Positions 31,495 to 63,975 of a DNA stretch of 64,000 nt are shown piece by piece. Source of the DNA: Polytrichum commune (lineage: Eukaryota > Streptophyta > Polytrichopsida > Polytrichales > Polytrichaceae); contig OX485805.1 of NCBI GenBank assembly GCA_950295325.1, positions 10,726,501 through 10,790,500 on the forward strand. The letters are read 5' to 3'. The notes beneath the pieces were generated by a model that did no database searches, was not told where the DNA came from, and saw nothing but the letters and a program-made list of their open reading frames with translations. The position numbers and the translations under genes were made by a program. Positions within the stretch are counted from its first letter, which is position 1. Each line of letters begins with the position of its first letter.

Positions 31495-32009
31495 AATTGA
31501 GACTTTCTCTAGTCTCAAATTAATATATGGATCAAAGAACTTGAAGAGGCCCGAAACTATATTGTCAACAATCTCAAATATATTATATGGTCTAATATCC
31601 CAAATCTATGATGTGCGGACATAAGCACATATGGTAGAGCACTCGACACCAACTTCATCAACGAAAACATATTAGGTAGAGCACTCCAAACAAGTTTCAC
31701 CCAAAAAACATATAAAATGATTTCTATTATTAGCATACTCAATAGAATATAGATATTGCAACATACAAAGTGCATGTAATAAATGCATATTTCTTCAATC
31801 GACAATATAGTCCCAAACATAATAATAAGATGAACTTCATATTTTTTTTGAAATATAGTAAATGGATATTCATCCAACTCCAAACAATATAGTATTCGTA
31901 AGTTCTACCCAAACTCTGCCCCAATTTTGAAGAGCACACGTATGAGTAATTTATATTGCTATAATTACGTATTAAACTATAATCATGCTAACACAATCCT
32001 ACCAACTTC

Positions 32010-35000
32010 TCATTCAACGTGGGTTGGTTCTTCTGCAATCCGAGCAAGGTTGTCTTTTGCAAAAGTTATGTACTTTTGAGGGATGGACACTGATCCACTA
32101 TGATTTTTCCGTGGTTTCCATGCTATGAATATGGAATCTGTATCTACCCAAGATGGACCGTGCTCAGAATCCACCTTCCACCGAAAGTTAGGGTTTGTAT
32201 CCCAGCCTGTATAATGCCGAATCACATCTTCATTCCTTGTTGTCGGTCGGTAGTACTCCACTTGTATTTGTCGAAAATGAGGACTGCAAGTTGTAAAATT
32301 TGGTTTGGACAAAGCTCTTGCCACCCACACTGGCTTCGCATATGTCTCGTCTCTAGGACGCAAAATGAGCATATAACCTTCATGACAATCCACTGCAATG
32401 TGGAAAGATGGTGGGGGACGTTGACTAGCAGGCCCAACGTAATGGTCGTCCACATCAAACTCCTCTCGAATCTCTCCATTTTCCAGAAGACAAGCCTCCA
32501 TAGCTTGTACATGGACACGAGTTTGTGGCCAAAATCATTGCCTCAAAGTATGAGGGCTATCTTGGTGTAGGTCTGCCAAGGAGGCACGAACACGTGTCCA
32601 ATAATGAATCCAACTCCCATATCGATGCCAACATGATCCGCCAACATCCGCTATCTTCAAACTCTCTCAATATTGTATGAAGCCTGATATACCTTTCAAA
32701 ATATCCTCCAAATTCTTCATGGGTATTGGCTTGCAAGGCCTAGGCTCTCCATCCGGTAACATGGTGTTCCCATCCGCATCCACGCGCCACACAAGGAGAC
32801 CCTCCGGCGGGCTCCAGTCTTGTGTCGTACACAACAACTTGTATTGCATGGCCGGAATACCATCGTCATGCATGTAGAACCGGAATTGTTGTGCCTTCGT
32901 ATGCCCGATCAATCGGTGAGCTCCACTTCGAATATAAGGTTCTATAAATGCCTTTGAAGTCTGGCACCTCCTCGATCATATGGGGGATGACGGGAACGTT
33001 CTCCAAATCCATGTACGACTTCATCAATACTGGGATTGTAGGAAAATCCTCCTCCCGCAACTTCATGCTCCACCGCCCAAAAGATGCATCAATATCATCG
33101 TGCGTGTGGCCTACCAATAGGAAGGACACAAAAACCTCTTTGAAAATGCCTTTCGCAACCAACAACGACCAATATGCAAATATATATCTACTTTTATTGT
33201 CCTTGGCACAATTGTCCAATTGGACACGCAAAGTAGGGGGCAACTTCTTTGCAATCACAGGTTCACTGGGTGGCTCGGGCAACGAATGCAAGCATACATC
33301 TTTTCCATCCAACACCGCTTCATATAAAGGTGTTGAACCCGTGTTTTCAAATAACAATCTTGAAGAATAGGTTGGCGGTTTCTCTAAATCACGTAAAAGC
33401 CTTACAAATGACCCTATCGTGTGGTCATGGGTAGATCACTCCATTGTCAAGTTGAACACCACGTGCGACCAAAAAAAATCTTCTTTTGGTAAGTTACACC
33501 ACCAAAATGGGTCAAAATTTTATCAAAATTTTATCATGAGTAGATATACACAGTACCTATGACATAGTCAAAAGTGGTAATTAAATTTGATGATTTGTTT
33601 TTTTCATAAAACATACCATTTCTAACTAGAATGACACAGAATTGAACTAAAATAATTACTAAAAAAAATAAAAATGACTAAAGAATTCAAAAAAGTATAC
33701 AAAAGATACTATCGATGGTTATGTATATGTAAAAAAATATCATAAATTTTAAAATTATATATGGCATGTAATATAGGGGTAGCAAACTTTGTCCGCACAT
33801 GGTGTCAACTTGACAATGAAGTGACCTCCCCGTGCGTGTGGTTTGAATCTGCTGGATACAAATCAAGAGCATAATGAGCATACTTGACATCACCGTGTCC
33901 ATGTGCAATCATTCTTGCAATGCCAACCGAACGTGATTAGTATCTATGTATATCTAAATCATTTTGAATGAATCCATGTTGCCAAGTACATCACGGAATA
34001 GAAGACCAGAACATTTAGGGTATGTCATGACATTGTTTCGATGTTCACCTGTAACCGATACAAGCAACTTAAAAAACCCATCTGTGGCCTTGATACAATT
34101 TGCAAAACATGGGGAGGCTGTTTTGGCATGGTCCATTTTGTCATGGATGACCGTAAAAACCTCTAAGGGCCTAGAGATGGACAAAGCCCTATTTGTGTAG
34201 TAATCATTACGGTGTGCCTCTTGCATGTTTACGTGCTTGAAATAGTTCAATTGATGCGCCACATATGACTCGGTACCCATCGTGTGTGCATCCCGAAGTC
34301 GCTTCAACTTCTCGCAATTAAAGCACATGGCAAATTTGTCCCCTCGTCTTTTTGTAATGTATTCACTAAAGTTTGCTTTCTTGATTGTACTCAATTTTGA
34401 CAATGAAATTGGCTCCAACCCAATCTTCTCGCCAACTGCATTCACGTCCAACAGTATGTCTTTCCATTTTGTGCCTGTGGGAAGAACTTTCTCCACAACC
34501 TTTTCACCGGTTGTGAGTGTGCGTGTTTTGTGCGGCATTGCATCGGCAAGGGGGACAATGATGGTTGCTAGAGTGGCCGTTGCTTGCCTTGTTGCTTCCC
34601 TAGGCTTCTTTAAACCCACATTCCCATGGTGACGGGATCGGCGGCCTTCCTTGGCATAAGCGGCTTGTCTATAAAAGTCCGCTTTCGACACACCGTGAAT
34701 GGTGTACCATGCCTTACAACACACGTCTATGCTTTCAAGCGTGATGACATTACGACCCGTCCCGTTCACATGTATTGCCCTATGGACATCAAGTTTTTTT
34801 GTGGATCTTAGACGGAAATCTCAAGCCACATTTCCTCACGGATGGCCTTCAATTTGTCCCTTGGAAACAATTGGCAACAACGATGCACACAACAATCCTT
34901 TGTGGCAACTTCTCTAATGGACTCCTCACCGAGCAACCTTTGATGTTTACAATCAGTTGCAGACGGAGCAGGACGTGCCAATGTATCGTACTTTCTTTAA

Positions 35001-35491
35001 TCCTTACGTGGCCGCATGTTCAATTGCAGCTCTTTTTCGATTTGCATGTGTCGTTGCTCATGTTCACGCAAGCTAACTCCATCAATCATGACAATCCTCA
35101 ATGGCCACCTACGGAGGGAGAACCTATGAGTGGGATCCACCTCGGAATGAACGAGCGACTCCTATATGACAACCCCAACGTCCTCGGTGCCAAGCGGGTG
35201 TTCATCAATGCAATCTTGTGGATGGGTGTTACGACAAATACCCTCTGCCACACCAACTCCATTGTCATTAAGAAGTACCACCTCCAAATTCACCCACGAA
35301 GCTCTTGAAAGCCCTGCACACTCTACAATCGGACACTGTGGAACGGACGGCGAGGGTAAATCCAAATGATCTTCATCTGTAATGTCATCCATAGTAGCCT
35401 CCCCGACAATGTCAAACTCGTCCTCAGAAGCAGATGGCCAAGTGGCCATGTCTTCAGCTGACGAATATCTTATTCCACTGTACCCATACAT
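32010..35491 (-). pseudogene. Element 2 gene T: DUF7869-type putative transposase, broken
   Basis: Homologous along its length to the intact gene at 51246-54314. The start ATG (35491) follows a conserved splice acceptor (GTGTGTAG). Exon 1 runs to 34049 with an intact GT donor and exon 2 from about 33914. Lesions: a TAG at 35162-35164 where the other copy has Leu; further disruption before 34769; the exon 2 acceptor changed from CAG to CAA (33915); a 409-bp MITE in exon 2 (33426-33834); a frameshift near 32940; and stops before 32667 and 32501. Motifs that still read well include HDKMDHAKTASP, LDNCAKDNKS and GHTHDDIDASFG. Exonic sequence matches the other copy closely while leader and array spacers do not, so the two T genes belong to distinct lineages. 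Confidence 0.85.
33426..33834. mobile_element. hAT-type MITE, copy 2 (409 bp), inside element 2 gene T
   Basis: Relative of 26063-26468, with ends CATGGGTAGATCACTCC and ...TGACCTCCCCGTG. Perfect 8-bp target duplications CGTGTGGT lie at 33418-33425 and 33835-33842. The uninterrupted site is visible in element 1 gene T (reverse complement near 52900-52915), where a single copy of the octamer stands in coding sequence. This fixes the insertion boundaries exactly and shows it postdates the split of the two T lineages. Confidence 0.93.
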
Positions 35492-35699
35492 TGTGCCTAC
35501 ACACATGAACACGACACCTTGTAAAGAATGACAAAAGCTATAGGGTCTATTATAAAAACACAGAATACATATCATATAATGACACTTGTTAATTCTCAGT
35601 CGTAACACATGTTGATATGAATATTATGCCATTGGGTTCGAAAAGGTTGGGGCCTACAATAGTGTGTTTAAAATCACAATATGTACATCCCCACTGTGG

Positions 35700-36485
35700 G
35701 CAATGAGTTTGGGTCGAGCAACCCAATCCTGTTGTCAGGATGCGGCATAGACATAGGGTCATGGACCCACAAGACCTCCAAAATGGGTTCGGGTCGACCG
35801 ACCCAAACCTCGTGACAGGATGGGCCCCGGTCGTCTAACCCAGCCCACACTGTGTGGATGGGTTTGGGTCGAGCGACCCAAACCTCTTGTTAGGATGGGC
35901 CTTGCTTGTCAAACCTAGCCCACACTTTGTGGATGGATTTGGGTCGAGCGACCCAAACATCTTGTTAGGATGGGCCTTGCTTGTCTAACCCAACCCAAAC
36001 TGTCTGGATGGGTTTGGGTCGAGCGACCCAAACCTCTTGTTAGGATGGGTCTTGCTTGTCTAACCCAGCCCACACTGTGTGGATGGGTTTGGGTCGATCG
36101 ACCCAAATCTCTTGTTAGGATAGGCCTTGCTTGTCTAACCCAAGGCACACTGTGTGGATGGGTTTCGGTCAAGCGACCCAAACCTCTTATTAGGATGGGC
36201 CTTGTTTGTCTAACCCAGCCCACACTGTGTGGATGGGTTTCGGTCGAGCGACCCAAACCTCTTGTTAGGATGGGCCTTGCTTGTCTAACCCAACCCACAT
36301 TGTCTAGATGGGTTTAGGTCGACCGACCCAAACCTCGTGATATGATGGGCCCCATTTGTCTAACCCAGCACACACTGCGTGGATGGGTTTGGGTCGACCG
36401 ACCCAAACCTCTTGTTAGGATGGGCCTTGCTTGTCCAACCCAGCCCACACTGTGTGTATGGGTTTGGGTCGTTCGACCCAAATCT
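35700..36485. repeat. 75-bp tandem array with one 20-bp palindrome per unit (element 2 T leader)
   Basis: About ten to eleven units, period 75 bp. Palindromes start at about 35788, 35863, 35938, 36013, 36088, 36163, 36238, 36312, 36388 and 36463, plus a degenerate one near 35707. The core is TTTGGGTCGNNCGACCCAAA; the 55-bp spacer includes CCTCTTGTTAGGATGGGCC. The array lies between the T promoter (36.7 kb) and the acceptor before the T start codon, so it would sit in a 5' leader intron. The array in element 1 has the same palindrome but unrelated spacers. Confidence 0.9.
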
Positions 36486-36696
36486 TCCGCAATTTACGCC
36501 TGATAATGCGGCATACTTCCATTTCGCCTAAATAGAAACTACTTGGATGAATTCAGGCCGTGCATGGCTATTCTATTTAGCTACTCATGAACGGAGGTGT
36601 ACACAAACCTTGTACTCCACCTCTAACTGAGAGAGCTTGCAATGATTTCAGAATGGGGAGATGAGGAAAAAGGACCGAATTCCGGGGGGTTTGGGA

Positions 36697-36797
36697 CTTT
36701 ATACTACCCGCCTCCACCTTGGCCTTCCTCTTTGGATGCCTTTCCCGCCGGAATTTCATTTGACCCTTAATTCAAACCTTCTGACAGACTTTCCCGC
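36697..36797 (-). promoter_or_regulatory. Element 2 T promoter: TATA box and E2F-type sites
   Basis: On the minus strand, TATAAAG (36703-36697) is preceded by GGCGGGAAA (36741-36749) and a second GCGGGAAA (36790-36797). Both match the plant E2F site TTTCCCGC in reverse. The block from TCTGTCAG through GGCGGGAAAGGCATCCAA to TAGTATAAAG is shared with element 1 at 49720-49795, while flanking non-coding DNA is not. Promoter function is inferred from position and conservation. Confidence 0.55.
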
Positions 36798-36934
36798 TTC
36801 ATGCTCGTAATAGATAATCCATATTTAGCATGGCTCTTCGTCGCCCCAACCATCAAATGACCTTGCTAATTCCGCTATTAAATAACTACACAAAATATGA
36901 GGTGTGTGTTTCATTATATTTAGTGTTGCTACCA

Positions 36935-37640
36935 CCCTACCATGCTCAACATTAATTTTCAATTTTTTGACAATTAGTGTTAGACATAAATGTGTTGCTA
37001 CCTTCTACTCTCACATATATTTCTTCTTCTCACATCCTTACTAACATCCACTAAATCCAAACATGAACATTCCACATATTACCATAGATGATATTTATTG
37101 TTCGAGTTTACATTTAATGTTACTTACTTTCATATGGTTATTGATATTTAGTGTATGCGTTATAGTTAGTGTATCAAACACTAAATATCATATTTTTTGT
37201 AATTGTGTTTTGTAACTAAAGTTTTTGGCGATTTGCCCTGCCAAAAAATGTAGTGAACTTTATTTGTTTAAAACAAATGTTTGACGAAAAATCTAATCAA
37301 ATGTAGTTGTACCTAGTCAATGAAAGTTGAACAGAACATGTCCACGACTTCATGTTATTGTGTTGTAGTGTCACTACACTAAATGAAATATTTAGAGTTT
37401 GATACACTAAATACGAACGCATCTACTCAATACTAATACCACTATGAAAGTAAGTCACATCAAATGTAAACTCAAACACTTAATATTATATATGGTAATA
37501 TGTTGAAGTTACACGTTTGAATATAGTGTTAGTAAGGGTATGAAAAAAACAATGATAAAGGAAGATCTCCAATATATCTTCCAATATCCTCTAACACTCT
37601 TTGTCAAAAAATTCAAAATTAGTGTTGATGGGGTTAGAGT
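36935..37640. repeat. Long inverted repeat (fold-back) in element 2 intergenic region
   Basis: Left arm about 36935-37190, right arm about 37385-37640, separated by about 190 bp. Matching landmarks include AATTTTTTGACAA, CATATTACCATA, GAGTTTACATTTAATGTTAC versus its complement, and TTAGTGTATCAAAC. A transcript would form a long hairpin. It is absent from the corresponding region of element 1, so it is probably a fold-back MITE inserted in element 2. Confidence 0.7.
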
Positions 37641-38609
37641 GTTTTATTTTATGTGCCTATGACATGCACTATTGGGAGGAAAATGGTATTTGATAAGTGA
37701 TTTTGAAAACCCATCCTCCACAACTTCACATCAATGCATTGCATACAGAAAAAATTATGTAATTCTAGGATATTACTCTACTTGGACTCAAATATTATGG
37801 TTTATTTCAAACAATATATTGACAATAGATGTGGCAACATTATGAAACTTTATATAGTATAAGCCACCAAATACAATTACAGTTTAGTATGTAGTTATGA
37901 CGACTTTCACATGAGGACTTATACATTGAAAAGAAGAATTCATGTCATGACAAATTTGAATAATTTGGCCAACTTTCAATTTGCGACAATAAAAATGAGA
38001 AAAACTTGAAAAGAACATATGGCGTTTGTAATGTGTGCACACAACGTGCTCCATTGTCAAGCATGCATGTGTGGCAATGAATAACGTATGTGGAAGGCAT
38101 TAATGGGAATTCCATCATGAATGGGACTTTATAGTTTAGGGTTTCAAGGATGTTTGAAACTATCATGAAGTCCACTTGAAATCTAGTATAAAGATCATAT
38201 CTACTATAACCAAGTTATTATACTCTTCATGACAATATACATTTGTATTGAAAACTACAAGCACCAAGGCTTGTAGTTCATGTTACCTATGTGCCATTCA
38301 TTTGTGGCTTGCGGTGTTTAGGGTTTAGGGTTTAGGGTTTAGGTTGGAGGGATCATCAAACATCAAACTTAATGCTTAAATGGCTTCATATGATTTTGAA
38401 CTCCATGGGGTTCCAGTAGATAAATTTGTAATCTTTGTGCATCTCCCATGTACTTCAAATGTCAACTTCTATGTACTGATATAAATGATTAGGGCAATGC
38501 TACTTGGGTGGCTATCCATTGTAGGCTAGAGCCTTGTCTTCTACCAACTTGGGTTATGAAAATTACAATAGAGAGCCCTAAACCCTTGACCATGTTAATG
38601 GTTAGCATA
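37641..38609. other. Element 2 intergenic DNA with telomere-type repeat
   Basis: AT-rich, with no gene. It contains about four TTTAGGG heptamers (near 38312-38340), as does the matching region of element 1. It is interrupted at 38614 by element 1. Confidence 0.5.
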
Positions 38610-38754
38610 TTTAAACACTATATTCGTTAAATTGAGACTTTTTGGGCATTTTGAGATAATCACATAAATAAGAACAAGGATAAATGGAACACATATTGGA
38701 GAAAGTTGTAAGATGCGAACACTTTGAAGCGGGTGTTTAGAACAAGAACCCCAT

Positions 38755-39020
38755 TAATAACTCATATTTGGGATTGTTTAGGGTGGGCAATCCAAACCTT
38801 AGGCCAAGTTGAAGGGGAAATCTTAAAACATTTATATTATCGCACAAAAACTTGTATGAATATGGTTTAGGTAGCGCAATCCAAACCATAGATCATATTG
38901 AAGGGGAAATATGTGAACCAATATAATATAACATACAAAATATTCCAAACTCATATTTGTGATGGTTTAGGTAGGGCAATCCAAACCTTAGACCATATTG
39001 AAGGGGAAATCATGTGACAC
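38755..39020. repeat. Subterminal ~95-bp repeats at the P end of element 1
   Basis: Three copies of GGTTTAGGTAGGGCAATCC followed by AAACCTTAGACCATATTGAA and GGGGAAAT, spaced about 90-100 bp. The same set occurs inverted at 63565-63835 in element 2. Repeated, conserved and next to the terminus, they are candidate binding sites for transposition proteins. The T end lacks them. Confidence 0.7.
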
Positions 39021-39151
39021 TTATATTATTGCAAAAAAAACATACAAATTATGGCATGTAAAATGCATAGCATGCTAACACCACACATCCATTGGATAGT
39101 GCGACCCAAAATGTTCTTGCCTATGGCTCACAACCCTACGCCTACTATGGC

Positions 39152-39972
39152 CTATCTAGCCTCGGAGACTACCTCTTTTTCTTTTGCTTCATTTTCTTTT
39201 GCTTTTTTTTCTTTTGCCTCTTTTTCTTTTGCCTCTTTTTCTTTTGCTGCGGCTTCTTTTGCTCGCATTGCTTCAACATTCCTGAAAATCTCCGCCCCGC
39301 GACTATAGCCATTCTTGGGGTGACCGCCATCAATAACACATTTTGGATTCCGTCGGCCGCCCGAATTATACGACGAAGAATTCGAATACGATGAAGTGGA
39401 CTGTCTTGCATTTCTGGTCATGGAGTAGAAACGCTCCAACTCGACGGACGCACTAGCCCGCATAGGTCTACGGGTGGGAGCAACCTGCAACGCGTGAATG
39501 CAAGAACACACGTGTTAGTTTAGGGAGGAAGACCCAAACGTGTCACACGTTCATTTTTTAAGTGCCGGATGATTGTAATGCGCAGTTAACCATGTTTTGG
39601 GGGGGGGGGGGGGTTCACCTTGTCACCGGGGGCGTTCCCGTCGGAGTCGGCGAGGAGGGGCAATGCATCCCGCAAAGGAATAGGAAGGGTGCCACTCTTC
39701 GTAGGCCGAGCGTCCATCCGCAGCCGCCGTTGAGGTGTACTACTGCCGCCGGGCCGAGACGGGGACGTCCGGACGCATTTGCGATTTATGCCCTTGAGCG
39801 GCGACAGGGACGGAGATGGCCGGAAGATTTGCTTGGGTGGGGGGCTATCGACGACGCCGGCGTCAATAGGCTCCTTGGAGTAGTCGATGGTGGACGCGGC
39901 ATCGTAGACGGTCTCGTAGAAGAAGCTCCCCAAGTTTGATTCGCTGACGATGTCAATCGAGGGCTCCAAACG
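39152..39972 (-). CDS. Element 1 downstream exons (two), Lys/Glu-rich C-terminus, unknown
   Basis: Exon a (39972-39619, 118 codons, after acceptor CCCATCAG, before donor AAG|GTGAAC) begins RLEPSIDIVSESNLGSFFYE. Exon b (39484-39152, after GCGTTGCAG) reads VAPTRRPMRASASVELERFY and ends in an A/K/E repeat (KEKEAKEKEAKEKKAKENE) likely to form a helix. Both keep phase 0. The same two exons with the same splice sites exist at 62642-63435, and exon a is exactly 354 nt in both, so coding constraint is likely. Exon a has no ATG. It must join an upstream exon, either by alternative splicing from P exon 4, whose stop is conserved, or from an unseen exon. Function unknown. Confidence 0.5.
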
Positions 39973-40091
39973 CTGATGGGAAAATTAAAACAAACAAAAC
40001 CCAAGGGGAGGGGGGCAGGGGGGGAGCATGAGAAAATCGATATACAATTGAGGCATACTATATCACACACAATGGCACACCATGTAGTATC

Positions 40092-41343: not shown

Positions 41344-41365
41344 CTGGGAAGGCTCAGTGTGTTAC

Positions 41366-44675: not shown

Positions 44676-44685
44676 CAATACTCAC

Positions 44686-54314: not shown

Positions 54315-54784
54315 GAAGTTGGTAGGATTGTGTTAGCATGATTATAGTGTAAACTGTAATTCGACGAATATATATTACTCATATGTGTGCTCCTCAAACT
54401 TGGGGCAAAGTTTGGGTAGAACTTGCGAATGCTATATTGTTTGGGGTTGGATGAATATCCATTTACTATATTTCAATACAGTTGTGAAGTTCATTTTTTT
54501 TATTAAGTTTGGGACTAAATTTTCCATTGAAGAAAAATGCATTTATTGCATGCACTTTGTATGTTGCAATGTCTATATTTTATTGACCATGCTAATAATA
54601 GAAATTATTTTATATGTTTCTTGGGTGAAACTAGTTTGGAGTGCTCTATCCAAAGTGTTTTTGTAGATGAAGTTGGTGTTGAGTGCTCTACCACATGTGC
54701 TTATGTCCACACATAATAGATTTGGGATATTAGAACATATAATATATTTGAGATCGTTCTCAATATAGTTTCGGAACACGGAAT

Positions 54785-54846
54785 GTTGTTTGATCCATAT
54801 ATTAATTTGAGACTAGAGAAAGTCTCAATTTAACGAATATAGTGTT
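54785..54846. repeat. Right terminal inverted repeat of element 1 (T side)
   Basis: GATCCATATATTAATTTGAG, ACTAGAGAAAGTCTCAATTT and AACGAATATAGTGTT run to 54846. The outer ~27 bp mirror 38614-38641. Inner sequence also matches the left end of element 2 (31495-31535, reversed), as expected for T-side ends. Confidence 0.85.
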
Positions 54847-55064
54847 TTTATATTGTTGCACCGTGTAATTGCATTTGAGGATTGGAATATAATAATGACA
54901 TACTCCTCTTAGACTTTGTATCACTCTCATCTCACTCTATATGACTACATTATTGAAATTGTAAAACAAATAATGGATTCATTCTACGATGTTAGCAATT
55001 CCAACGCGGGACCATTGAATTGAACACCATTAAAATCAAAGTTCGCGATGGTGTTAATTTTGTG

Positions 55065-56721
55065 GAATACCTTAGGCTATGTAGCTTTTCGAATTTTTTC
55101 TAATGGCCGCTATAGATAGCGGCTTAGAATGCCGGGACCGAGCGGCCAAGAGAGGCGCTGGCCCTCCTATGTCGTGCTGCTAGGGGCGGCAGGTGTGCAC
55201 CCCACAAGCCTCGGGTAGCCACCATCACCAAGAGGGTGTTGACACATGGCAGGGTGGCTGCCTGCGAGGCTTGTGAACCGTTGATGGGCTCGGCCGCTCC
55301 AATGGCCCAGATTGGGTCCCAAGGCTAGCCCTATCTCTCTCTCTCTCTCTCCCTCCGCGATTTCTTTTTCTCTCCCTCCGCGCCAAGCTCCCTCCTTTCT
55401 CTCCCTCCTTTCTCTCCTTCTTGTCGTGAAGCGGCGGCACCTCCCCCGAAGCGACAGCTCCGCCTAGCGCCGCATTTTCTTATTCTCTTACTCCTTTCCA
55501 CCTCTGACATTCTTCTAACCTTCTTCTCGGATTCTCTCTTCTTTTTGTAAGGGTTTAGGAGCAATTTCAGTGTGTGTTTATTGTAGAGGAGTGTGTTTTT
55601 GTTTAGGGGGACTTGCATTGAATGATTTCAGAGTCTGTTTGTTGTTTATGAGTGTGTTTTTGTTTATTGAGTGATTTCAGAGTGTGGTTGACGTTTAGGA
55701 GAGTGTTTTTGTTTAAACAGACGCGCATTGAGTGATTTCAGAGTGTGGTTGTTGTTTAGTGTTTAGGGTTTTTGTTTAAAGATACGCGCATTAAGTGAAT
55801 TCAGATTGTGTTTGTTGTCTAGGAGTGAATTTTTGTTTGAAAGTATGCGCATGGAGTGTTTTCGGAGTACGCTTGTTGTTTAGGAGAGTGTTTTTGTTCT
55901 AGAGTGCGCGCTTTGAGTGATTTCAGAGTGTTTTTGATGTTTTGAAACTGGCTTTTGTTCTTAAAGTGCAAGACAGAGTGATTACAACTTATTGCCTCAG
56001 TGATACAGAAACTTTGGCCTGAGTGTTAGTGAGATTTGAGTGTTCAGGTGTGATTACAGACTGATTACAGCTTATTGCAGCTTGAATCAAGGTATTATCT
56101 TTACTCAACATAATATGCTTCAATTTCTTTAGGGTCTTGATGCATATACAATGCATAAGCATTGTATATGTTGTGTCCAAAAATTACATATGAATCTTGA
56201 AACACAATAGTTTTGGGCGACGCCCCAAATCTCTATATAAAACCCCAACCCCATAAAAACTTAACAATGTAAATGTTGCAGGTGGTTTGGGTCGCTCGAC
56301 CCAAACCCTGCTGATGGTTTGGGTCGCTCGACCCAAAACCTACAACGAACCAAGCCAATATCTCAAACTAAACAACCTTCTAAACATTAATAACCATTTT
56401 TTTGATGCCCATAATGTGGAATCTCCTGAGACTAGTTGGCATGTCCACATATGTCCAGCGCGGATTAACCAAAACATCAAAAATTGCTGAGAGAACGGAT
56501 AATTTGAACACTACTTGGTGCTAATCAATATACTCAGCGTCATAAGACTCGAAATCCACCAACAATTCTTGTATAATTGAGCTACTCCAGGCTTGGGTTT
56601 GGGTCGCTCGACCGAAACCTGTCATTCATGGTGACCAAAAGAATATCGTTCTCCCATTCCACCAAATAGAATGCTTTGGGTCAATCGACCAAAACTAACA
56701 GTGTCGTTTCTAGAATTACAG
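55065..56721 (+). promoter_or_regulatory. Element 2 P promoter/leader region
   Basis: Contains AATACCTTAGGCTA (about 55065), a CT-rich tract (about 55330-55410), six or so ~70-bp units of GAGTGATTTCAGAGTGTGGT with TGTTTAGGAGTG (about 55560-55990), the 28-bp dyad at 56143-56170 with perfect 12-bp arms, and palindromes at 56286-56305, 56318-56337, 56598 and 56675 (the last two are variants). Acceptor ATTACAG abuts the P start codon at 56722. The order parallels the minus-strand region 47530 to 46012 in element 1. Confidence 0.55.
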
Positions 56722-58047
56722 ATGGCCCCCAAGAAGAGACCTGGAGAAAGGTGGTTTATGCTCGCGCCAGACGAACTATGGCAGGAGTACGAAACTCCCC
56801 AGGACGACACATACGTGCCCAAGGATGGGCTCGTTCTTGCGTGGTCCGTCCAGGTTGTGAAGTCCTCCCACTTCAAGCTGCTATTCGTGGTGAAGGTGGG
56901 GACCCACGAGCAGCACACATGGGCAACACTGACGGGATGGGAGGTTGCGTCCGTCCAAGCTCTCGGGGACTACGTTGACGTTATTCTGGAGAACTCCGCC
57001 GTGCAGAACGTTCATATGTTCATGCACCAATTCTCCGAGGCTTTCGACCCCTTCTACGCCAAGGAGACGTGCATTGAACCGGAGACAATAAAACAGGAGG
57101 CCATCTTCATAGATGGCAGTGTAACAAACACTAAGATTGCTAGCAGGTTCACAAAATTGAAACATGCTATCACGGTTCACAACAAGGCGCTGCAAAACAA
57201 ACCCAAAACGCAGCAACCGTTGAGGCGGAAGGCCACGACAGAAGAAGGCGCGGGGTCCTCAAGACCCCAAACTGTGAGAAAGCCGCGGCCGGTGCCTGCA
57301 GACTCTCGAAGGACGAGTACTACCTCGACGCCGGCTGACAGCTCTACGCCAACGCCGTCCGCAAGCTGGCAGACGACACCGTCCAAGAGGGGAAGAGAGT
57401 CATCAATGATGACTGACGAGCCAGCTTCACCAGAGCTGCGGATGCCGAAGCCTGGCCAAGAGGTGGATGCAGGGGAAATACAAAAGATCAACGACAACTT
57501 CGAAACAAAATGCATCCACTGCTTCTTCATGGGCAGGGGCTTCAAGTTCGACGTTAACATCGCCCAGTGCCACCTTGCGCCACCAGAAAAGTGTGTCCGA
57601 GCCAAGGATGACGCCTACGTTGACTGGATGGTCGCTCAGATATTGGGCGGTCAGTTCAAAGATGACAGGCAGACGATTGTGGTCATGCCCCAAGGCCTAA
57701 AAAAAATGCCGACGCCTGATATGTGGCCGGCAATTTCAAAGGGAGATTTCTGGCTGATTGACGGCCAACACAGTGTGGAGGCCTCCAAAAAAATTTAGCT
57801 GATGACTGAATGGGACGACCCCCACAAGCAGAAGGAGAAGCTCAAGGTGTGGAAGGCATTGGTGGTCTGATGTGACAACGAGACCGTTCTTACTGACATC
57901 TCCCGCTTCTTCAATATGGGAAACAAGAAGAGGGCATATCAGGCATCATGGATTAGGAATATCATGGCCTCGAGGGAGGTGTGGGAGTTTTATGGAAGGC
58001 CTCCCAAGGAAAGGGAGAATGCGAAAGACAAGAACCCGAAATGGGAG
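56722..58047 (+). pseudogene. Gene P exon 1 (element 2): ParB/DGQHR-like domain, broken
   Basis: Exactly 1,326 nt, as in element 1, with the same acceptor-ATG and donor (GAG|GTGAGC). Interrupted by TAG at 57796-57798 (CAG, Gln, in element 1) and TGA at 57868-57870 (TGG, Trp, in element 1), both consistent with cytosine deamination. The FWLIDGQHSVEASKKI core is intact just before the first stop. Confidence 0.8.
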
Positions 58048-58056
58048 GTGAGCAAG

Positions 58057-58191
58057 TTTGGGTCGTTCGACCCAAACTCTTGTATTCTTTCATTGTCTTT
58101 GTCAGGCTTATAGTTTGGGTCGATCGACCCAAACTCTTGTATTTTTTTTATTGTCTTCGCCAGGTTTTTAGTTTGGGTCGACCGACCCAAA
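58057..58191. repeat. Three palindromes in P intron 1 (element 2)
   Basis: Exact copies at 58057-58076 (centre TT), 58114-58133 (AT) and 58172-58191 (AC), spaced 57-58 bp. Spacers share AGTTTGGG...CCCAAACT flanks and TTGTATT but differ from the 46-bp spacers of element 1. Confidence 0.95.
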
Positions 58192-58254
58192 CTGCTGATG
58201 CATTTCTTGTTTCATGACGTGTTGTCTAACGTGTGTTGTTTACTTCATTTGCAG

Positions 58255-59585
58255 GATTTCAAATACCAGATGATTAATAAATTCTCCTCGATTGACAACG
58301 CAAGCCACAAGCAGAAGAAGTACAACGAGCTACGAGGAGAAATTTATTTAATCACTGCTTCTGACTCTGTGTGGGGAAAATGGAAGTGTGTTTTCGAGAA
58401 ACACGAGACGGGGGACCTCACGGACCCCGACACCGGCATGCTCTTCAACCAGATTGCGCGCTTCAAGAAAATGGAGCCTCTGGTGAGGGAGTTCTTCAGA
58501 GCTCTTCAAGGGCTTTCGGAGACAAAGATGAGAAAGGCGGCTTCCCACATCCTTCACGTACAGCCCACGTACGACGAAGAGATACTGGGTCCACCCGAAG
58601 ATCGTCTTCACCAAGCCTAAAAGCTTCGTCCCTTCATGCTACACAATGAAGGAATGGACGGAGAACAGGAAGAAGAAGACGACCATCGTCCAGGAGCTGC
58701 ACAAGCTTGTGCCGGAGAAGAAGCTCCTTGTGGATGGAGAGGTCGACGAGGCGCACTGGAGGGCCTTCAAATCCGAGTACAAGTTTACCAGTGCGTCGAT
58801 GGCGGCACTCATGAGGGAGGCGGGAGACGAATTCCTCAGGTCCAAGCTCGTGAAAGGGGGGAAGAACCGGGCGCTTCCCGAACACTCCGCGCGTGCCTTC
58901 TCCAACTTCATAAAGGAGAAGGAGATCGTTAGTTTCGAAGGGGACGCACATTTCAACTTGGTCACCCTCGACCCGCTCAAGATCCAAGGCTGGCCAGGGT
59001 CCGATTCCAGGAAGGCGATCAGGACAAAAGCCGGGGATCGCTTCCCCTTCGCATTGATAGACTTCAGAAACATCCCTGGAGCTTCATTCGAGGGGACAAT
59101 GAGCACCTCGTTTTACGAGCCATTCTTCTCCAAGTTCGTCGACTAGTCCCAAATTCAAGGAGGTGGATATCTGGTTGTGGATTGTCGAGGACAGGAGGGC
59201 GGAGCAAGTCTACGAGATTGTGCGGAAATTGCAGCCAGAGTACGCCGTCTCGAAATCCCACTACGTTGCTGCACCGGCGGAGGGGGCGTACAACACTTTG
59301 AAAGACAAGAAGACGAAGATCGTCAATGTGTTGTGCTTGTACTTCGTGTACAAAGCTGAGCTGCTGAAGGTGCCAAACCATCCTATAGCCCGGATGGAAA
59401 AGCTTTTCCAGGTCCCAGACGTGTTGGGTACCAGCAGGAGTTTGTACAATGAGGCGAAATACGCCAACTACCCCGCGGATGAGCTGCGGATGGATTTCTA
59501 CCTGCGGATGATGAGGACCCTCACGAAGAGGGGGGACTGCATCTTCAACGTCTTCGGGGGCTCGAAACCGGTCTTCGCTGCAATG
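58255..59585 (+). pseudogene. Gene P exon 2 (element 2): methyltransferase-like region, broken
   Basis: Same splice sites as element 1 (TTTGCAG|GATTTC; ATG|GTAAGC). A net 4-nt insertion near 58565-58590 and a 5-nt deletion near 59142-59147 (creating a TAG) break the frame. Glycine is present where element 1 has its TGA, so each element is damaged at different places. The end keeps GDCIFNVFGGSKPVFAAM. Confidence 0.75.
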
Positions 59586-59619
59586 GTAAGCAACTACCCT
59601 GAAGTTTTAATGTGTTTGG

Positions 59620-59639
59620 TTTGGGTCGAGCGACCCAAA
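59620..59639. repeat. Palindrome in P intron 2 (element 2)
   Basis: One exact copy with centre AG in the 128-bp intron between donor 59586 and the acceptor before 59714. Confidence 0.95.
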
Positions 59640-59713
59640 CTAGTTTTGTATTGGTTGTCATTTTTCTCTATTCTTCATTGGTGATACTAACGCTATTGAT
59701 ATGGATTGTGCAG

Positions 59714-61170
59714 ATGTCTGGGTTGAACATCTACTCCTATGTGGAGGATGCCGATGTTCAATTCTACAGGACCCAAAAGTCTCTGGCTAAGAGGATGGAC
59801 ATCCTCGACTGGATACCGGGATCCTACATTGGCGAGATCCTCCAGGGGGGTGAGAATCCGCTTGATATGGCGAGGCGAATCAACCCGGAAGAATTTACCA
59901 TGCGGCCCTCCGTTGAATTGCCAGAACCACTCATCGGGTTGCATCCGGGCAATCCGTCAATGGGAGCAGGTGGCGAGGTTGCGGAGGAGGGGGAGGAGGA
60001 GGAGGAAGCAGAAAAAATGGAGGGGGAGGTGGAGGAAGGGGCAACATGATTCACTCAAGAATCCGAAGCCCCTCAGCGGAAGAAGGCCATGCGGGCTGCC
60101 ACGCCGCAGAGCAGGCTGGTGCATGTGCTCACGGTGGACGACGCGAAGGAGATGTACTCGAGGGACGCGATGGCCACCTTCAGGGATCGGCGAAGGCTGA
60201 AGGGGAAAAAATTGTACAGCGACTATGCGGTGGAGGAGACGATCGCCATAAGCTCCGAGGATGAGGACGACATGGAGCTCGCGAAGAGGCTAAGGTCGGA
60301 TCATGCCTCCCCCACAGCGTTCGCCGGGAATGTGAGGGTGAAACCGGAAGTCCTCATCGTGGAGGAGGCCAACGCGAAAATGCTCTGGGACGAGGAGCAG
60401 CGCGTCCGATTGGAGAAAGCTGCCGCGGATGAGCCCTCGGTCCGCAACGAAGTCGCGGAGTTGAGGGCTCTCCTTTTGGAGTAGGAGCGGCAAAGGGCGA
60501 TGGCCCAACCTCCCTCCCAAGCGGAACTGATCACGCAAGTGATTCAGGGCATGCTGGCGCAGGGATTGGTGATGGCTCCCCCGAGTGCATTCCCTCATTT
60601 GCCCGCCGGCTTCCCTCCCCAAGATATCGGCCCGCGCGTCAGCAGTCATTCAGCTTCGGGCATTTGCTACAGCCGCACGCCCGCCCTTACGCGCCCGTCC
60701 AGCAGGTGGACGACCCCAACCTTTGGCGCGTCCCCGGAGCGTCCATCTCGTTGGCACCCCCGCCGCTCCGGCCTCCCATCCTCTTGCCCCCACACCACCA
60801 GCGGGACGACCCCCACATGTTTGGGTCGTCCGACCCAAACAGTGCCGACGTTGGAGCGTCCCAGAGCGACCCTCGCCAAGCAGTAGGGTTTGGGTCGGCC
60901 GACCCAAACCCCGTCCCCGATCAGACCCCCGTTGACGAGCCCATGCTAGATGTTGAAGGCCCTCAAGGGCCTGATGATACCTCTATTCCTAACCCAGTCG
61001 ATGAACCAATGCATGATGCGCATGCGGAGGTTGGGTTGGGACAAAGGCCTGACAGTCAACCTTTGCAGGAGTAGGTTGCGGCTGACGTCGTCGTCGGAGG
61101 CGGCGGTGACAGAGGTGGGGCAACGCACGCGATGCCGGCATCAACGGCGTCAAGGCACGACCAAGGCGAG
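59714..61170 (+). pseudogene. Gene P exon 3 (element 2): acidic/coiled-coil/FGSxDPN region, broken
   Basis: Matches element 1 exon 3 from MSGLNIYSYVEDADVQFYR to the donor GAG|GTAATG. Stops: TGA at 60047 (Gly in element 1), TAG at 60482 (CAG in element 1) and TAG at 61072 (AAG in element 1); the frame also shifts around 60640. Two exact palindromes at 60820-60839 and 60889-60908 read FGSSDPN and FGSADPN in the protein frame. The TIAISSEDEDD motif is kept. Confidence 0.75.
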
Positions 61171-61192
61171 GTAATGCACTGACCCCACTCAG

Positions 61193-61212
61193 TTTGGGTC
61201 GGTCGACCCAAA
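61193..61212. repeat. Palindrome in P intron 3 (element 2)
   Basis: One exact copy with centre GT, 23 bp after the donor at 61171, the same relative place and centre as in element 1. Confidence 0.95.
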
Positions 61213-61684
61213 CTCCCCGGGTCTTTGTCTTCTTGCCTTGGTCGTGTCCCCTAGCTAGGACGAACTTACGCGCCCGTCACCCTCCCCCCCGGCACTCGCG
61301 CCCTTCGTCACCCCCGAGCGACCATCCGTTCGTCCACCTACCCCGGCTTGCGACGAAGTCTTCATCACGGCGGCGCGTCTCCTCAAATTTTGTTAGATGT
61401 AGATCTAGACTAGTTTGAACGCATCGTTCAACGCGGCTCCCCCCCATCAAGATGTACATAGAGCATTATATATAATATAATCACCATTTTTTACTCCTAT
61501 ATACTTGTATCTTGTGGTTGAATGTATATTGTATGCTTTTGCCTCTCTTGTGTCCCTTGTTGCACCCCCTCCAAGATGAATCAAATGGTTTTGTGTTTGC
61601 ACCGAGAACACTCGTTTCCTTAATGCTTCGTTTGGACATAGCATGACATAAGTCGCCCCCGTTTTCTCTCGCTCGTATCCGCAG

Positions 61685-62498
61685 GGCTCGGAGCATAGCG
61701 TAGCGGCTCCCCGACGCTCTTCTCCAAGGAGCGGAGAGGGCAGCACGGCGCCCCCCCCCCGGTTTTACCCGCCCCGCCCCCGCTGCCGAAGAAACGATTC
61801 CTGGTGTTAGACATGAACGGTGTCCTCGTGCACTGCGTTCATTGCCCTAGGGCCCCCACAGTGCCCTTTTGCAAGCCCGAGGACGCTAATTACGACGGGC
61901 CGCCCACGTTCATAAAGAGCAAGCTAGTTCACCTCCGCCCGTGGCTTCGGACCTTCCTGCAGATCGCCCAACAACGATGGTGGGTGGTCGTGTGGAGCTC
62001 CATGAAGGCCGAGAACACCAATGCCGTCGTGGAGTTCATCTTCAAGGGCATCGAGCCCCCCTGCATGGTCCTAGCACAGGAAGCATGTAGAATATTGTAC
62101 ACATCGGACGGCAAAGTCGTCAAAAAACCAAACAACGCCGCTTCCCCCCAATATCTCAAGGTCTTGAAGCCCATTTTTTGGGACCAGCGACCGTCCTTGA
62201 TAGGCGTCTCCTACGATGTCCGTCCCACCCGCGAGAACACGCTCATGGTGGACGACAGCGCCGCCAAGAACATGTTGAACCCGACGGCCAACTTCATAGT
62301 TTGCCTACGTGGACGGTCGAGAAGGTCCGGGACCGATTTTTGTTAGACCTTAGTAAATACCTCCAGGTGCTCTGGGGTAGCGGACTACCCGTAAACAATT
62401 TTGTTAGGAATAATCCCATAGGCGAGAGATACTTGGATCCACGAGACCATTTGTACAGAGAGTTGTTCTCACACGCGAAATTTAACAAGCTCATTTGA
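61685..62498 (+). pseudogene. Gene P exon 4 (element 2): FCP1/NLI-type phosphatase-fold domain, broken
   Basis: Begins at acceptor TCCGCAG|GG, as in element 1. Indels around a C-run near 61748 and near 62310 shift the frame; after the second, the correct frame ends YRELFSHAKFNKLI then TGA, the conserved terminus. Motifs retained: FLVLDMNGVLVHC, WWVVVWSSMKAENTN and NTLMVDDSAAKNMLNP. As in element 1, the second Asp of the DxD motif is Asn. Confidence 0.75.
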
Positions 62499-62641
62499 GG
62501 CACTACGTGTGTTTGTATGTGTGTGTGTGTGTGCCCGCCCACTTTGTGTAATACATGCTTCATATGTATCTTGATTTTCACGCTCTATCTCCCCCCTTTC
62601 CCTTTCCCTTGGGTTTTGTTTTGTTTCAATTTTGGCGCCAG

Positions 62642-63435
62642 CGTTTGGAGCCCTCGATTGACATCGTCAGCGAGTCAGACTTGGGGAGCTTCTTCTACGA
62701 GACCGTTTACGACGCCGCGTCGACCATTGACTACTCCAAGGAGCCTATTGACGCCGGCGGCGTCAATAGCCCCCCACCCAAGCAAATCTTCCGGCGCTCT
62801 GCGTCCCCGTCGCCGCTCAAGGACATAGATCGCAAATGCGTCCGGACGTCCCCCTCCCGGCCCGGCGGCAGCATTACACCTCAACGGCGGCTGCGGATGG
62901 ACGCTCAGCCTACGAAGAGTGGCACCCTTCCTATTCCTTTGCGGGATGCCTTGCCCCTCCTCGCCAACTCCAACAGGAACGCCCCCGGTGACAAGGTGAA
63001 CCCCCCCCCCCAACATGGTTAACCGCGCATTACAATCATTTTTCACTAAACAAAGGAACGTGTGACACGTTTGGGTCTTCCTCCCTAAACTAACACATGT
63101 GTTCTTGCATTCACGCGTTGCAGGTTGCTCCCACCCGTAAACCTATGCGGTCTAGTGCGTCCATCGAGTTGGAGCGTTTCTACTCCATGACCAGAAATGC
63201 AAGACAGTCCACTTCATCGTATTCGAATTCTTCGTCGTATAATTCGGGCGGCCGACGGAATCCAAAATGTGTTATTGATGGCGGTCACCCCAAGAATGGC
63301 TATAGTCGCGGGGCGGAGATTTTCAGGAATGTTGAAGCAATGCGAGCAAAAGAAGCCGCAACAAAAGAAAAAGATGCAAAAGAAAAAAAAAAACAAAAGA
63401 AAAAGAGGCAGTCTCCGAGGCTAGATAGGCCATAG
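62642..63435 (+). pseudogene. Element 2 downstream exons, partly degraded
   Basis: Exon a (62642-62995, 354 nt, identical length to element 1) reads RLEPSIDIVSESDLGSFFYE. Exon b (63124-63435) reads VAPTRKPMRSSASIELERFY and ends in a lysine-rich tract where a small indel in an A-run changes the final residues. Splice sites match element 1. The upstream junction is unresolved in both elements. Confidence 0.5.
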
Positions 63436-63564
63436 TAGGCGTAGGGTTTTGGGCCATAGGCAACATCATTTTGGGTCGCACTATCCAATGGATGTGTGGT
63501 GTTAGCATGCTATGCATTTTACATGCCATACTTTGTATGTTTTATTTGCAATAATATAATTGTC

Positions 63565-63835
63565 ACATGATTTCCCCTTCCATATGGTCCAAGGTTTGGA
63601 TTGCCCTACCTAAACCATCACAAATATGAGTTTGGAATATTTTGTATGCAATATTATATTGGTTAACATATTTACCCTTCAATAAGATCTATGGTTTGGA
63701 TTGCCCTACCTAAACCATATTCATACAAGCTCTAATATTTTGTGTGCAATAATATGAATGTTTTAAGGTTTCCCCTTTAGTTTGGTCTAAGGTTTGGATT
63801 GCCCACCCTAAACCATCACAAATATGAGTTATTTA
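63565..63835. repeat. Subterminal ~95-bp repeats at the P end of element 2
   Basis: Three copies of the same unit as 38755-39020, in reverse orientation (TTCCCCTT...GGTTTGGATTGCCC...TAAACCAT), confirming that this is the P-side end. Confidence 0.7.
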
Positions 63836-63944
63836 TGGGGTTCTTGGTCTAAACACCCGCTTCAAAGTGTTCGCATCTTACAACTTTCTCCAATATGTGT
63901 TCCATATATCCTTGTTCTTATTTATGTGAATGTCTCAAAATGCC

Positions 63945-63975
63945 CAAAAAGTCTCAATTTAACGAATATAGTGTT
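63945..63975. repeat. Right terminal repeat of element 2 (P side)
   Basis: Reads CCCAAAAAGTCTCAATTT then AACGAATATAGTGTT, the mirror of the left end of element 1 (38614-38645) over more than 30 bp. 25 bp of flank remain in the window. Confidence 0.85.

What the first reader, a model, noticed from the sequence alone, without database searches (positions are those of the whole stretch)
31495..63975. Two nested ~16.2-kb two-gene transposons of an apparently undescribed type
Seen: the gene order T(-) P(-) T(+) P(+) is explained most simply by element 1 (38614-54846) inserted into element 2. After removing element 1, element 2 has the same length (about 16.24 against 16.23 kb) and the same head-to-head gene layout. 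Termini match (AACACTATATTCG / CGAATATAGTGTT), and a possible TTTA duplication flanks the insert. Known: CACTA/EnSpm elements also carry a transposase plus a second DNA-binding protein gene and begin CACTA. Inference: this is a separate or divergent lineage, because the transposase is DUF7869-like and the partner is a ParB-like/FCP1-like fusion.
Basis: partly seen in the sequence, partly recalled or inferred. Interest (0 to 1): 0.95.

Follow-up and report, generated by a model that had tools for sequence, protein, structure and literature searches.

The report
Giant two-gene transposon with palindrome arrays
A 16-kb jumping gene, present in what looks like hundreds of copies in one eukaryotic genome, carries a transposase, a second protein with ParB-like and FCP1-like parts, and about two dozen copies of one short palindrome that look like landing sites for a protein that may help it escape silencing.

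Summary
The nested observation holds. Element 1 (38614-54846, 16,233 bp) is a TIR transposon inside an older relative: 26-bp inverted repeats, 4-bp target duplications (16 of 19 independent copies), and the uninterrupted target exists elsewhere in the genome. T and P lie between the same termini in 22 of 40 top-scoring places (20 independent; a lower bound) and in all four further full copies I read. dN/dS is below 1 in every exon block of both genes. Correction: element 2's left end has lost its terminal 16 bp.

GTTTGGGTCG-NN-CGACCCAAAC occurs 22 times exactly in element 1, 9,231 times in the genome, and in no prokaryotic or viral contig scanned. It sits upstream of both genes and in P introns, in arrays with different repeat units; degenerate versions of the same geometry lie near both ends. 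A second two-gene element (ParB-like plus methyltransferase-like partner) carries the same palindrome.

Best reading: an autonomous cut-and-paste element whose accessory protein P, or a shared factor, binds these sites to keep the element active, like VANC in VANDAL elements. Binding and anti-silencing are inferred, not shown. ParB-like accessory genes in algal transposons are already published: a new variant of a known kind.

The parts
38614..54846 (.). Element 1, two-gene TIR transposon with both ends, 16,233 bp
   Evidence: TIRs, TSD, empty site, same-structure copies
38610..38613 (.). 4-bp target site duplication, left copy (TTTA)
54847..54850 (.). 4-bp target site duplication, right copy (TTTA)
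38614..38639 (+). Left 26-bp terminal inverted repeat AACACTATATTCGTTAAATTGAGACT
54821..54846 (-). Right 26-bp terminal inverted repeat
51225..54314 (+). T gene of element 1: exon 1 51225-52689, 138-bp GT-AG intron, exon 2 52828-54314; 983 aa, DUF7869; D458 (HDKMD), D583 (QLDN), GHxHDDID at 618
   Evidence: junction matched by the intron-less 692-aa relative
39589..46011 (-). P gene of element 1, five exon blocks: 46011-44686 (ParB-like motif IDGQH), about 44213-43005, 42850-41354, 40892-40095 (NIF/FCP1-like), 39975-39589. Exon limits by eye from GT-AG and reading frame. Block 2 carries a TGA where the four other full copies are open
50064..51045 (.). Palindrome array upstream of T (12 exact plus 3 near sites; 64-67-bp and 56-bp units)
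46038..46403 (.). Palindrome array upstream of P (33-bp units)
44426..44676 (.). Palindrome array in P intron 1 (46-bp units)
42919..42976 (.). Two exact palindromes in P intron 2
41323..41735 (.). Palindromes in and just after the end of P block 3 (two exact, one with 1 mismatch)
38777..38985 (.). Three left subterminal TTTAG-N10-CCAAA motifs (38777, 38866, 38966)
54635..54654 (.). Right subterminal TTTGGAGTGCTCTATCCAAA (same TTTGG-N10-CCAAA geometry), starting 212 bp from the end
31495..38613 (.). Element 2, T side (older relative; left terminal ~16 bp lost)
54851..63975 (.). Element 2, P side, ending in an intact right TIR (63950-63975)
32010..35520 (-). T of element 2, broken into several ORFs
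56671..63022 (+). P of element 2, about 80% DNA identity to element 1, broken into several ORFs
35707..36483 (.). Palindrome array upstream of element 2's T (75-bp units)
56285..61213 (.). Palindromes upstream of and inside element 2's P

Best explanation
Element 1 belongs to a family of autonomous 16-kb cut-and-paste DNA transposons. The DUF7869 protein T is an RNase H-fold-type transposase (inferred from the D...DN...GHTHxDID motifs). It cuts at AACACTATATTCG and inserts with a 4-bp staggered break (duplication shown). P is an element-encoded accessory protein under purifying selection (dN/dS shown). It, or a closely linked factor, binds the 22-bp palindrome and its weaker subterminal versions as a dimer (inferred from symmetry, fixed geometry and conservation). 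By loading on arrays upstream of both genes and in P introns it keeps the element expressed or unmethylated, and through the subterminal sites it helps to assemble the ends. This would work like VANC in VANDAL elements or TNPA in Spm (inferred; TNPA recalled). The FCP1-like domain may act on transcription or chromatin proteins; its first HAD motif reads DLN/DMN instead of DxD, so it may be a non-catalytic binding module (inferred).
For: Mobility: 4-bp TSD flush with the TIR in 16 of 19 independent copies; empty site; T, P and left end in the same order in 22 of 40 top T places, three of them copies of one segmental triplication, so 20 independent; 11 (9 independent) are 15.9-16.2 kb long; four further full copies. 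Selection: dN/dS between subfamilies 0.06-0.09 (P block 1), 0.12-0.17 (block 2), 0.14-0.23 (block 3), 0.14-0.24 (block 4), 0.37-0.47 (block 5, few changes), 0.25-0.31 (T1), 0.15-0.19 (T2); no significance test. Sites: 34 matches with <=4 mismatches in element 1 (including 3 degenerate ones near the left end), 25 in element 2, 0 in window 1-31494, 0 in 5 Markov controls; 9,231 exact in the genome, reversed control 0. Arms vary less than the rest of a 75-bp array (0.072 against 0.139 mismatches per column; centre 0.319). Subterminal TTTAG/TTTGG-N10-CCAAA in 5 of 5 copies at both ends. Parallel: VANC21 motifs lie upstream of VANA and in introns of VANB/VANC and change by tandem repetition (PMC5735166 sections 8 and 9).
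Against: No binding, expression or methylation data. The ParB-like call is weak: no Pfam or NCBIfam ParB hit, one PHROG hit at E 0.098. No DNA-binding domain was identified in P; P block 5 was not scanned. The second palindrome-bearing family has no T or P homolog by tblastn, so the binding factor could be host-encoded or another protein. 15 of 40 top T places had no P among the 40 scored P places, and 13 of 40 P places had no T among the scored T places; at least one of the 15 (C1:2127922) does carry P, the others were not read. A third DUF7869 locus has a DGQH-type ORF about 7 kb away but no exact palindrome. Element 1 itself has a stop in P block 2, so this copy may not make a full P.
Confidence: 0.5

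Rival explanations
1. The palindrome is the site of a host DNA-binding protein (or of a protein of the second transposon family). Several transposons have captured it as a promoter or boundary element, and P does something else.
For: The same palindrome occurs in a second, unrelated ~12.2-kb two-gene family (12 sites by the 20-bp core in each of two copies) that has no P or T homolog at tblastn E<=1e-3. Of the first 100 listed genomic sites, 77 lie within three TIR-marked T/P copies (one of them, with 25 sites, read in full) and 23 elsewhere: 11 in or beside two copies of the second family matched, 9 in L049 beside a gene-B-like ORF, and 3 at C1:462875-462992 not read. Diverged proteins rarely keep an identical 20-base target (general expectation).
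Against: The subterminal versions sit at fixed places in 5 of 5 T/P copies. Both families that carry the palindrome encode a protein with a DG[NQ]H ParB-like motif, while the 692-aa DUF7869 family, with no P homolog found, has none. No site among those read lay in an evident host gene, but only a few loci were read.
Confidence: 0.25
2. The palindrome is the binding site of the transposase T itself, as internal enhancer and subterminal sites, and P is only a passenger or an enzyme.
For: Subterminal motifs of the same geometry near both ends; many transposases bind subterminal repeats (recalled).
Against: A T relative 34-51% identical over three segments in the 692-aa family has no such sites. 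The second family has the sites but no T homolog. Most sites cluster at promoters and introns, not at the ends.
Confidence: 0.15
3. T belongs to a superfamily already catalogued in Repbase (for example Sola, Chapaev or an unnamed plant lineage), so only the accessory gene and palindromes are unusual. (This is about classification and can be true together with the best explanation.)
For: 4-bp duplications are recalled for Sola and Chapaev; the CMCT group makes 2-5-bp TSDs (PMC12730594, passages); an H(4)H pattern lies after the second D (residue 682). A Sola1 element of Ectocarpus also carries an opposite-strand ParB-like gene (PMC12477816, passages).
Against: [quoted passage not shown] termini AA..TT, not CA..TG; no Pfam transposase family besides DUF7869 at E<=1; DUF7869 appears in 0 papers held. 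Repbase was not available, so this stays open.
Confidence: 0.4
4. Assembly artefact: the nested order comes from misjoined repeats.
For: The window lies in a near-identical ~84-kb triplication (C3 10.60, 10.68 and 10.77 Mb; the 40 flanking bases compared on each side are identical), where misassembly is possible.
Against: The flank join equals an intact empty site elsewhere with one TTTA; element 1 copies elsewhere have their own, different TSDs.
Confidence: 0.03

Closest known systems
Sola1-1_Ec32 of Ectocarpus and ParB-like/methyltransferase accessory genes of algal transposons (PMC12477816, passages read; its sources Iyer 2011 and Petroll 2025 seen only in its reference list)
   Same: Giant DNA transposon with a transposase and an opposite-strand accessory gene holding a ParB-like domain; proposed there to bind and modify the element's own DNA
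   Different: Here the partner ends in an NIF/FCP1-like domain instead of a methyltransferase and the transposase is DUF7869. Palindrome arrays were not mentioned in the passages I read. The second family of this genome (L050 with L055 and L056) fits that published kind better
VANDAL21 (MULE) with VANC anti-silencing protein (PMC5735166, abstract and sections 8-9 read)
   Same: Accessory protein encoded by the element; short motif arrays in introns of accessory genes and upstream of the transposase, evolving by tandem repetition
   Different: The motif here is a 22-bp palindrome, not YAGTATTAY; no DUF1985 hit in P blocks 1-4; TSD 4 bp (VANDAL TSD length recalled as 9-10)
CACTA/EnSpm (TNPD + TNPA; gene names recalled)
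   Same: Two genes, subterminal repeats, CACTA letters near the ends
   Different: 4-bp TSD adjacent to AACACTA; no C(2)C in the expected place; no EnSpm Pfam hit
VirB-type ParB anti-silencers of bacteria (PMC10653881, start of abstract in search listing only)
   Same: A ParB-family protein that offsets silencing after binding a short site (partly recalled)
   Different: Bacterial, acts against H-NS; no sequence link tested

Membership tests
Class II TIR DNA transposon | Terminal inverted repeats at both ends | tested here: met
   26-bp TIR, 395 + 407 genomic matches, reversed control 0
Class II TIR DNA transposon | Target site duplication of constant length | tested here: met
   4 bp in 16 of 19 independent copies; 2 of the other 3 are reciprocal swaps
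Class II TIR DNA transposon | RNase H-fold DDE/D transposase | tested here: inconclusive
   D458, D583 and GHxHDDID conserved in motif, except that the second D is replaced in the distant relative v588; fold prediction failed, pLDDT 31.7
CACTA/EnSpm (CMCT) | Ends CAC..GTG with 3-bp TSD (group: CA..TG in most cases, 2-5 bp TSD) | tested here: not met
   4-bp TSD flush with AACACTA..TAGTGTT; definition from PMC12730594 passages. The 4-bp length alone would fit the wider group
CACTA/EnSpm (CMCT) | C(2)C and H(3-4)H between second D and last E | tested here: not met
   The only C..C in T is at residue 397, before the first D (458); an H(4)H pattern exists at 682
Sola | 4-bp TSD (recalled) | tested here: met
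Sola | Sequence relation to Sola transposases | not testable with these tools
   No Repbase or Dfam; no Sola paper found with the terms used (0 papers)
KDZ (Zisupton, Kyakuja) | TSD of 8 bp (Zisupton) or 7 bp (Kyakuja) | tested here: not met
   4 bp; lengths from PMC12730594 passages; Dileera not covered
ParB/DGQHR-like proteins (P block 1) | Profile match to ParB family | tested here: inconclusive
   No Pfam or NCBIfam ParB hit; PHROG 1033 ParB-like, E 0.098, over the IDGQH stretch
ParB/DGQHR-like proteins (P block 1) | IDGxH motif conserved | tested here: met
   WLIDGQHSVEASKKI in 6 of 6 copies examined
NIF/FCP1-like phosphatase (P block 4) | Pfam NIF profile | tested here: met
   PF03031 E 1.8e-13
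NIF/FCP1-like phosphatase (P block 4) | Catalytic DxDx motif I (recalled) | tested here: not met
   LDLNGVLV in 5 of 6 copies and LDMNGVLV in element 2; MVDDS present in 6 of 6
Published ParB-like + DNA methyltransferase transposon accessory class | Methyltransferase domain fused to ParB-like domain | tested here: not met
   P has NIF instead; the other family in this genome has a methyltransferase-like domain (PHROG 3008 E 5e-05)
VANDAL/VANC | Accessory protein shown to bind the motif and remove methylation | not testable with these tools
   needs bench data

The most novel reading that the evidence does not exclude
A eukaryotic ParB-like/parS-like system: the transposon-encoded ParB-like protein P recognises a 22-bp palindrome in about two dozen copies per element and protects the element from silencing. 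Unrelated transposons in the same genome share the identical site, so one TE family's anti-silencing factor (or two converged ones) serves, or is pirated by, another. T would be the founding member of a DUF7869 transposase superfamily.
Probability: 0.25. Interest if true: 0.9.

Novelty: new variant of a known kind. Interest (0 to 1): 0.72.

Why it matters
It links an orphan domain (DUF7869, 0 papers in the held library) to a mobile element with defined ends and target duplication, and it supplies a specific, cheaply testable DNA-binding site. If P binds the palindrome, it would be another anti-silencing system besides VANC, built from a different protein, with the site shared across unrelated transposons. 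How selfish DNA in eukaryotes escapes silencing is an open question, and here candidate protein, site and thousands of natural sites are all in one genome.

Tried and rejected
Tried without result: AlphaFold of P block 1 and of T exon 2 without an alignment (pLDDT 32.7 and 31.7), so no fold search was run. PDB sequence searches found only chance-level hits. Relatives of T exon 2 and of P block 1 in viral contigs: none confirmed. Palindrome, exact, in viral contigs and genome contigs: 0 and 0. Rfam on the window: 0. Ends of the uninterrupted element-2-type copies at C3:10.14 and 33.94 Mb were not found where expected; the pieces fetched did not fit an undisturbed copy. The 692-aa DUF7869 family is at least 15.4 kb long; its left end was not reached, so its TSD is unknown. 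The ends of the second palindrome family were bounded at about 12.2 kb but no TIR or TSD was assigned. PMC8969392 (one passage) gave nothing on 4-bp TSDs.

A weak argument I tested: outside intact palindromes CpG is depleted in the T-upstream arrays (o/e 0.34 and 0.32), while 20 of 22 palindrome CpGs in element 2's array are kept (sites, counted by eye). The sites were chosen by likeness to the consensus, so this is partly circular.

Rejected: plain CACTA/EnSpm and Zisupton/Kyakuja membership (TSD length, motif test); P being a chance neighbour of T (order and spacing repeated in 22 places; dN/dS below 1 in all blocks); palindromes being chance (reversed control 0 against 9,231).

Dropped or limited: counts cover only the 40 best-scored places each. 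The TIR spacing list used the 90 C1 ends that one search printed, of 802 in all. Codons with gaps or stops were skipped, and copy cB was left out of the T comparison. Two copies (L001, L003) were dropped from the TSD count as segmental duplicates of the window. P block 5 was not scanned against profile libraries. The three palindromes at C1:462875-462992 were not read.
Full report
Setting. The window is C3:10726501-10790500 of an unnamed 408-Mb genome in 64 contigs. Interstitial TTTAGGG repeats suggest a plant lineage; I did not establish the host.

Element 1 is real and complete at its ends. It runs from 38614 to 54846, 16,233 bp. Both ends carry AACACTATATTCGTTAAATTGAGACT. Genome-wide the 26-mer occurs 395 times forward and 407 times reverse with at most one mismatch, and its reversed control never. 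Of the 90 ends listed on C1, 70 form 35 converging pairs and 20 stay unpaired. One pair is 4.8 kb apart, 21 are 14.4-18.5 kb and 13 are 22.8-146 kb, the last group presumably interrupted copies or neighbours. Short deleted derivatives with good ends are therefore scarce in this sample. About 800 ends imply roughly 400 copies, or 6 Mb (inference).

Target duplications. Of 21 copies whose two ends I read, two (L001, L003) share the window copy's flanks base for base over the 40 flanking bases on each side and belong to an 84-kb triplication. Of the 19 independent ones, 16 have an exact 4-bp duplication directly next to AACACT: TTTA, TCAT, ATAT, TATT, TGTT, AAAT, ATGT, TTGG, TAAG, ACTA, CAAT, TGAT, ACAT, ACAT, ATGT, ATAT. 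Three do not. L017 has unrelated flanks. L019 and L021, at C3:32.27 and 32.03 Mb in opposite orientation, have exchanged 4-mers (ATAT/GATA against GATA/ATAT), as expected if the two copies recombined and inverted the segment between them.

Nesting. The joined flanks of element 1, with one TTTA, match 40 of 40 scored places (183 candidates) without interruption, one at 100% over 300 bases. Element 1 therefore inserted into the intergenic part of an element-2-type copy. Element 2's right end is intact (63975) but its left end has lost the outer 16 bp. Its T and P are broken into several frames.

T and P travel together. T, P and left-end searches (40 scored places each) joined give P upstream of T on the same strand in 25 of 40 T places, and P plus the left end in 22 of 40. 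Conversely 27 of 40 P places have a scored T downstream. Three of the 22 are the triplicated copies, so 20 are independent. Eleven of the 22 (9 independent) are 15,896-16,233 bp long; the rest are longer and presumably interrupted. Four further copies read in full (C1:2.11 Mb, C3:52.99 Mb, C3:17.44 Mb, C6:30.08 Mb; the last is also among the 22) all have left TIR, P, intergenic, T, right TIR.

Genes. T is 983 aa over two exons with a 138-bp GT-AG intron; a 692-aa ORF in another family (34-51% identical over three segments) runs through the same junction without an intron and supports the splice. T has PF25273 DUF7869 and aligned motifs HDKMD, QxDN and GHTHxDxD; in the more distant v588 locus the second D reads S. 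Element 1 reads GHMH where the four other full copies and element 2 read GHTH. P has five exon blocks on the opposite strand. Block 1 holds WLIDGQHSVEASKKI (6 of 6 copies) with one weak ParB-like PHROG match (E 0.098). Block 4 is NIF/FCP1-like, with DLN or DMN in place of DxD. Block 2 of element 1 contains a TGA; the four other full copies are open there, though several have breaks elsewhere. Exon limits are by eye and no transcript was available.

Selection. Between subfamilies (el1, cA, cB for P; el1, cA, cC for T) dN/dS is 0.06-0.09 for P block 1, 0.12-0.17, 0.14-0.23, 0.14-0.24 and 0.37-0.47 for blocks 2-5, and 0.25-0.31 and 0.15-0.19 for T exons 1 and 2. No significance test was made, and block 5 rests on few changes. 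dS is uneven along the element (0.5-0.7 in P block 1, 0.07-0.14 in blocks 4-5 and T), so copies are mosaics.

Palindromes. GTTTGGGTCGNNCGACCCAAAC occurs exactly 22 times in element 1 and 11 times in element 2, and not at all (even with 4 mismatches) in window 1-31494; five Markov controls gave 0. In the genome there are 9,231 exact sites against 0 for the reversed control. No exact match was found in IMG/VR contigs or in the held contigs of one genome for each of 84,980 prokaryotic species. The central two bases are free (11 dinucleotides among 139 exact sites). Sites lie upstream of T, upstream of P and in P introns, with three in or just after P block 3. Units of 75, 64-67, 56, 46 and 33 bp show that arrays arose repeatedly in different contexts. 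Within the 75-bp array the arms vary half as much as the rest (0.072 against 0.139).

Subterminal sites. In 5 of 5 full copies there are two or three TTTAG-N10-CCAAA motifs within 380 bp of the left end, and one TTTGGAGTGCTCTAYCCAAA starting 190-212 bp from the right end. The geometry equals that of the palindrome (TTTGG-N10-CCAAA). This ties the palindrome to the mobile unit's ends and suggests one dimeric protein with strong internal and weaker terminal sites (inference).

The second family. Of the first 100 listed genomic palindromes, 77 fall within three copies marked by TIRs (one of them, with 25 sites, read in full) and 23 elsewhere: 11 in or beside two copies of a second family, 9 in L049, which has an ORF like that family's gene B, and 3 unread. 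The second family is a repeat of about 12.2 kb, shared by two loci with different flanks. It holds a transposase-like gene with a weak SWIM match (E 0.03, under Pfam's cut-off) on one strand. On the other strand are ORFs with FFIWDGNHRFFAWKNY (ParB-like by motif only; no Pfam or NCBIfam ParB hit) and, further on, a DNA-methyltransferase-like stretch (PHROG 3008, E 5e-05); that they form one gene is inferred. It has no T or P homolog at tblastn E<=1e-3. Its palindromes again lie upstream of the ParB-like ORF and between exons of the other gene. Forty scored places (of 1,093 candidates) match its first gene at 97-100%. The 692-aa DUF7869 family has neither a P homolog nor the palindrome over the stretch read. 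A third DUF7869 locus (L053/L054) has a DGQH-type ORF about 7 kb away and no exact palindrome, so the link between ParB-like genes and this palindrome is suggestive, not strict.

Mechanism. Shown: mobility, ends, duplication, two-gene unit, dN/dS below 1 in both genes, conserved site arrays. Inferred: T is the transposase; P (or a shared factor) binds the sites; binding keeps the element active. VANDAL21 offers the closest functional parallel. VANC21 binds YAGTATTAY arrays found in introns of VANB and VANC and upstream of VANA, and these arrays change by tandem repetition (PMC5735166, sections 8 and 9 read). [quoted passage not shown] P replaces the methyltransferase with an FCP1-like module.

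Novelty. The kind (giant DNA transposon with a ParB-like accessory gene) is known. The combination DUF7869 + ParB-like/FCP1-like + palindrome arrays did not appear in the listings of nine literature searches, which cover open-licence PMC papers only. Repbase and Dfam could not be consulted, so a superfamily claim is not made.

Noticed in passing
G000 C3:32030303-32053541 (+) and C3:32274479-32290573 (-); L019-L022: Two oppositely oriented copies carry each other's 4-bp duplications (ATAT/GATA swapped), the footprint of an inversion of about 0.24 Mb by recombination between them.
   Followed up: partly
G000 C3 about 10.60, 10.68 and 10.77 Mb (the window is the third): Three near-identical copies of element 1 whose 40 compared flanking bases on each side are identical, 83.8 kb apart: a segmental triplication or an assembly effect.
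   Followed up: partly
L050 with L055 and L056 (G000 C1:2145500-2167500); L049; L065/L066: A second two-gene element of about 12.2 kb, at least 40 places at 97-100%, with ParB-like and methyltransferase-like ORFs and the same 22-bp palindrome.
   Followed up: partly
window 49248-49308: A solo copy of the right end (97% identical to the true end, 61 bp) sits in the intergenic part of element 1, and one is also seen in copy cD; a degenerate one lies at 37518 in element 2.
   Followed up: no
window 1293-3522: ORFs resembling a BED-finger hAT transposase (by eye, no profile run).
   Followed up: no
window 9342-16974: ORFs resembling a non-LTR retrotransposon: endonuclease, reverse transcriptase, RNase H (by eye).
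   Followed up: no
L051/L052, L061-L064 (G000 C2:3.67 Mb, C7:37.23 Mb): A separate DUF7869 family with a 692-aa uninterrupted ORF, at least 15.4 kb at over 99% between two copies, with no P homolog or palindrome found.
   Followed up: partly
element copies el1, cA, cB, cC: Synonymous divergence is about 5-10 times higher in P block 1 than in P blocks 4-5 and T exon 2: subfamilies are mosaics or undergo gene conversion near the ends.
   Followed up: no
L053/L054 (G000 C3:1625000-1643000): A third, more distant DUF7869 locus near an ORF with GRDFSFIVDMNHVRPP...VDGQHVEHA, which resembles P block 1 (GRDFKFDVNISQCHLAPP...IDGQH).
   Followed up: no
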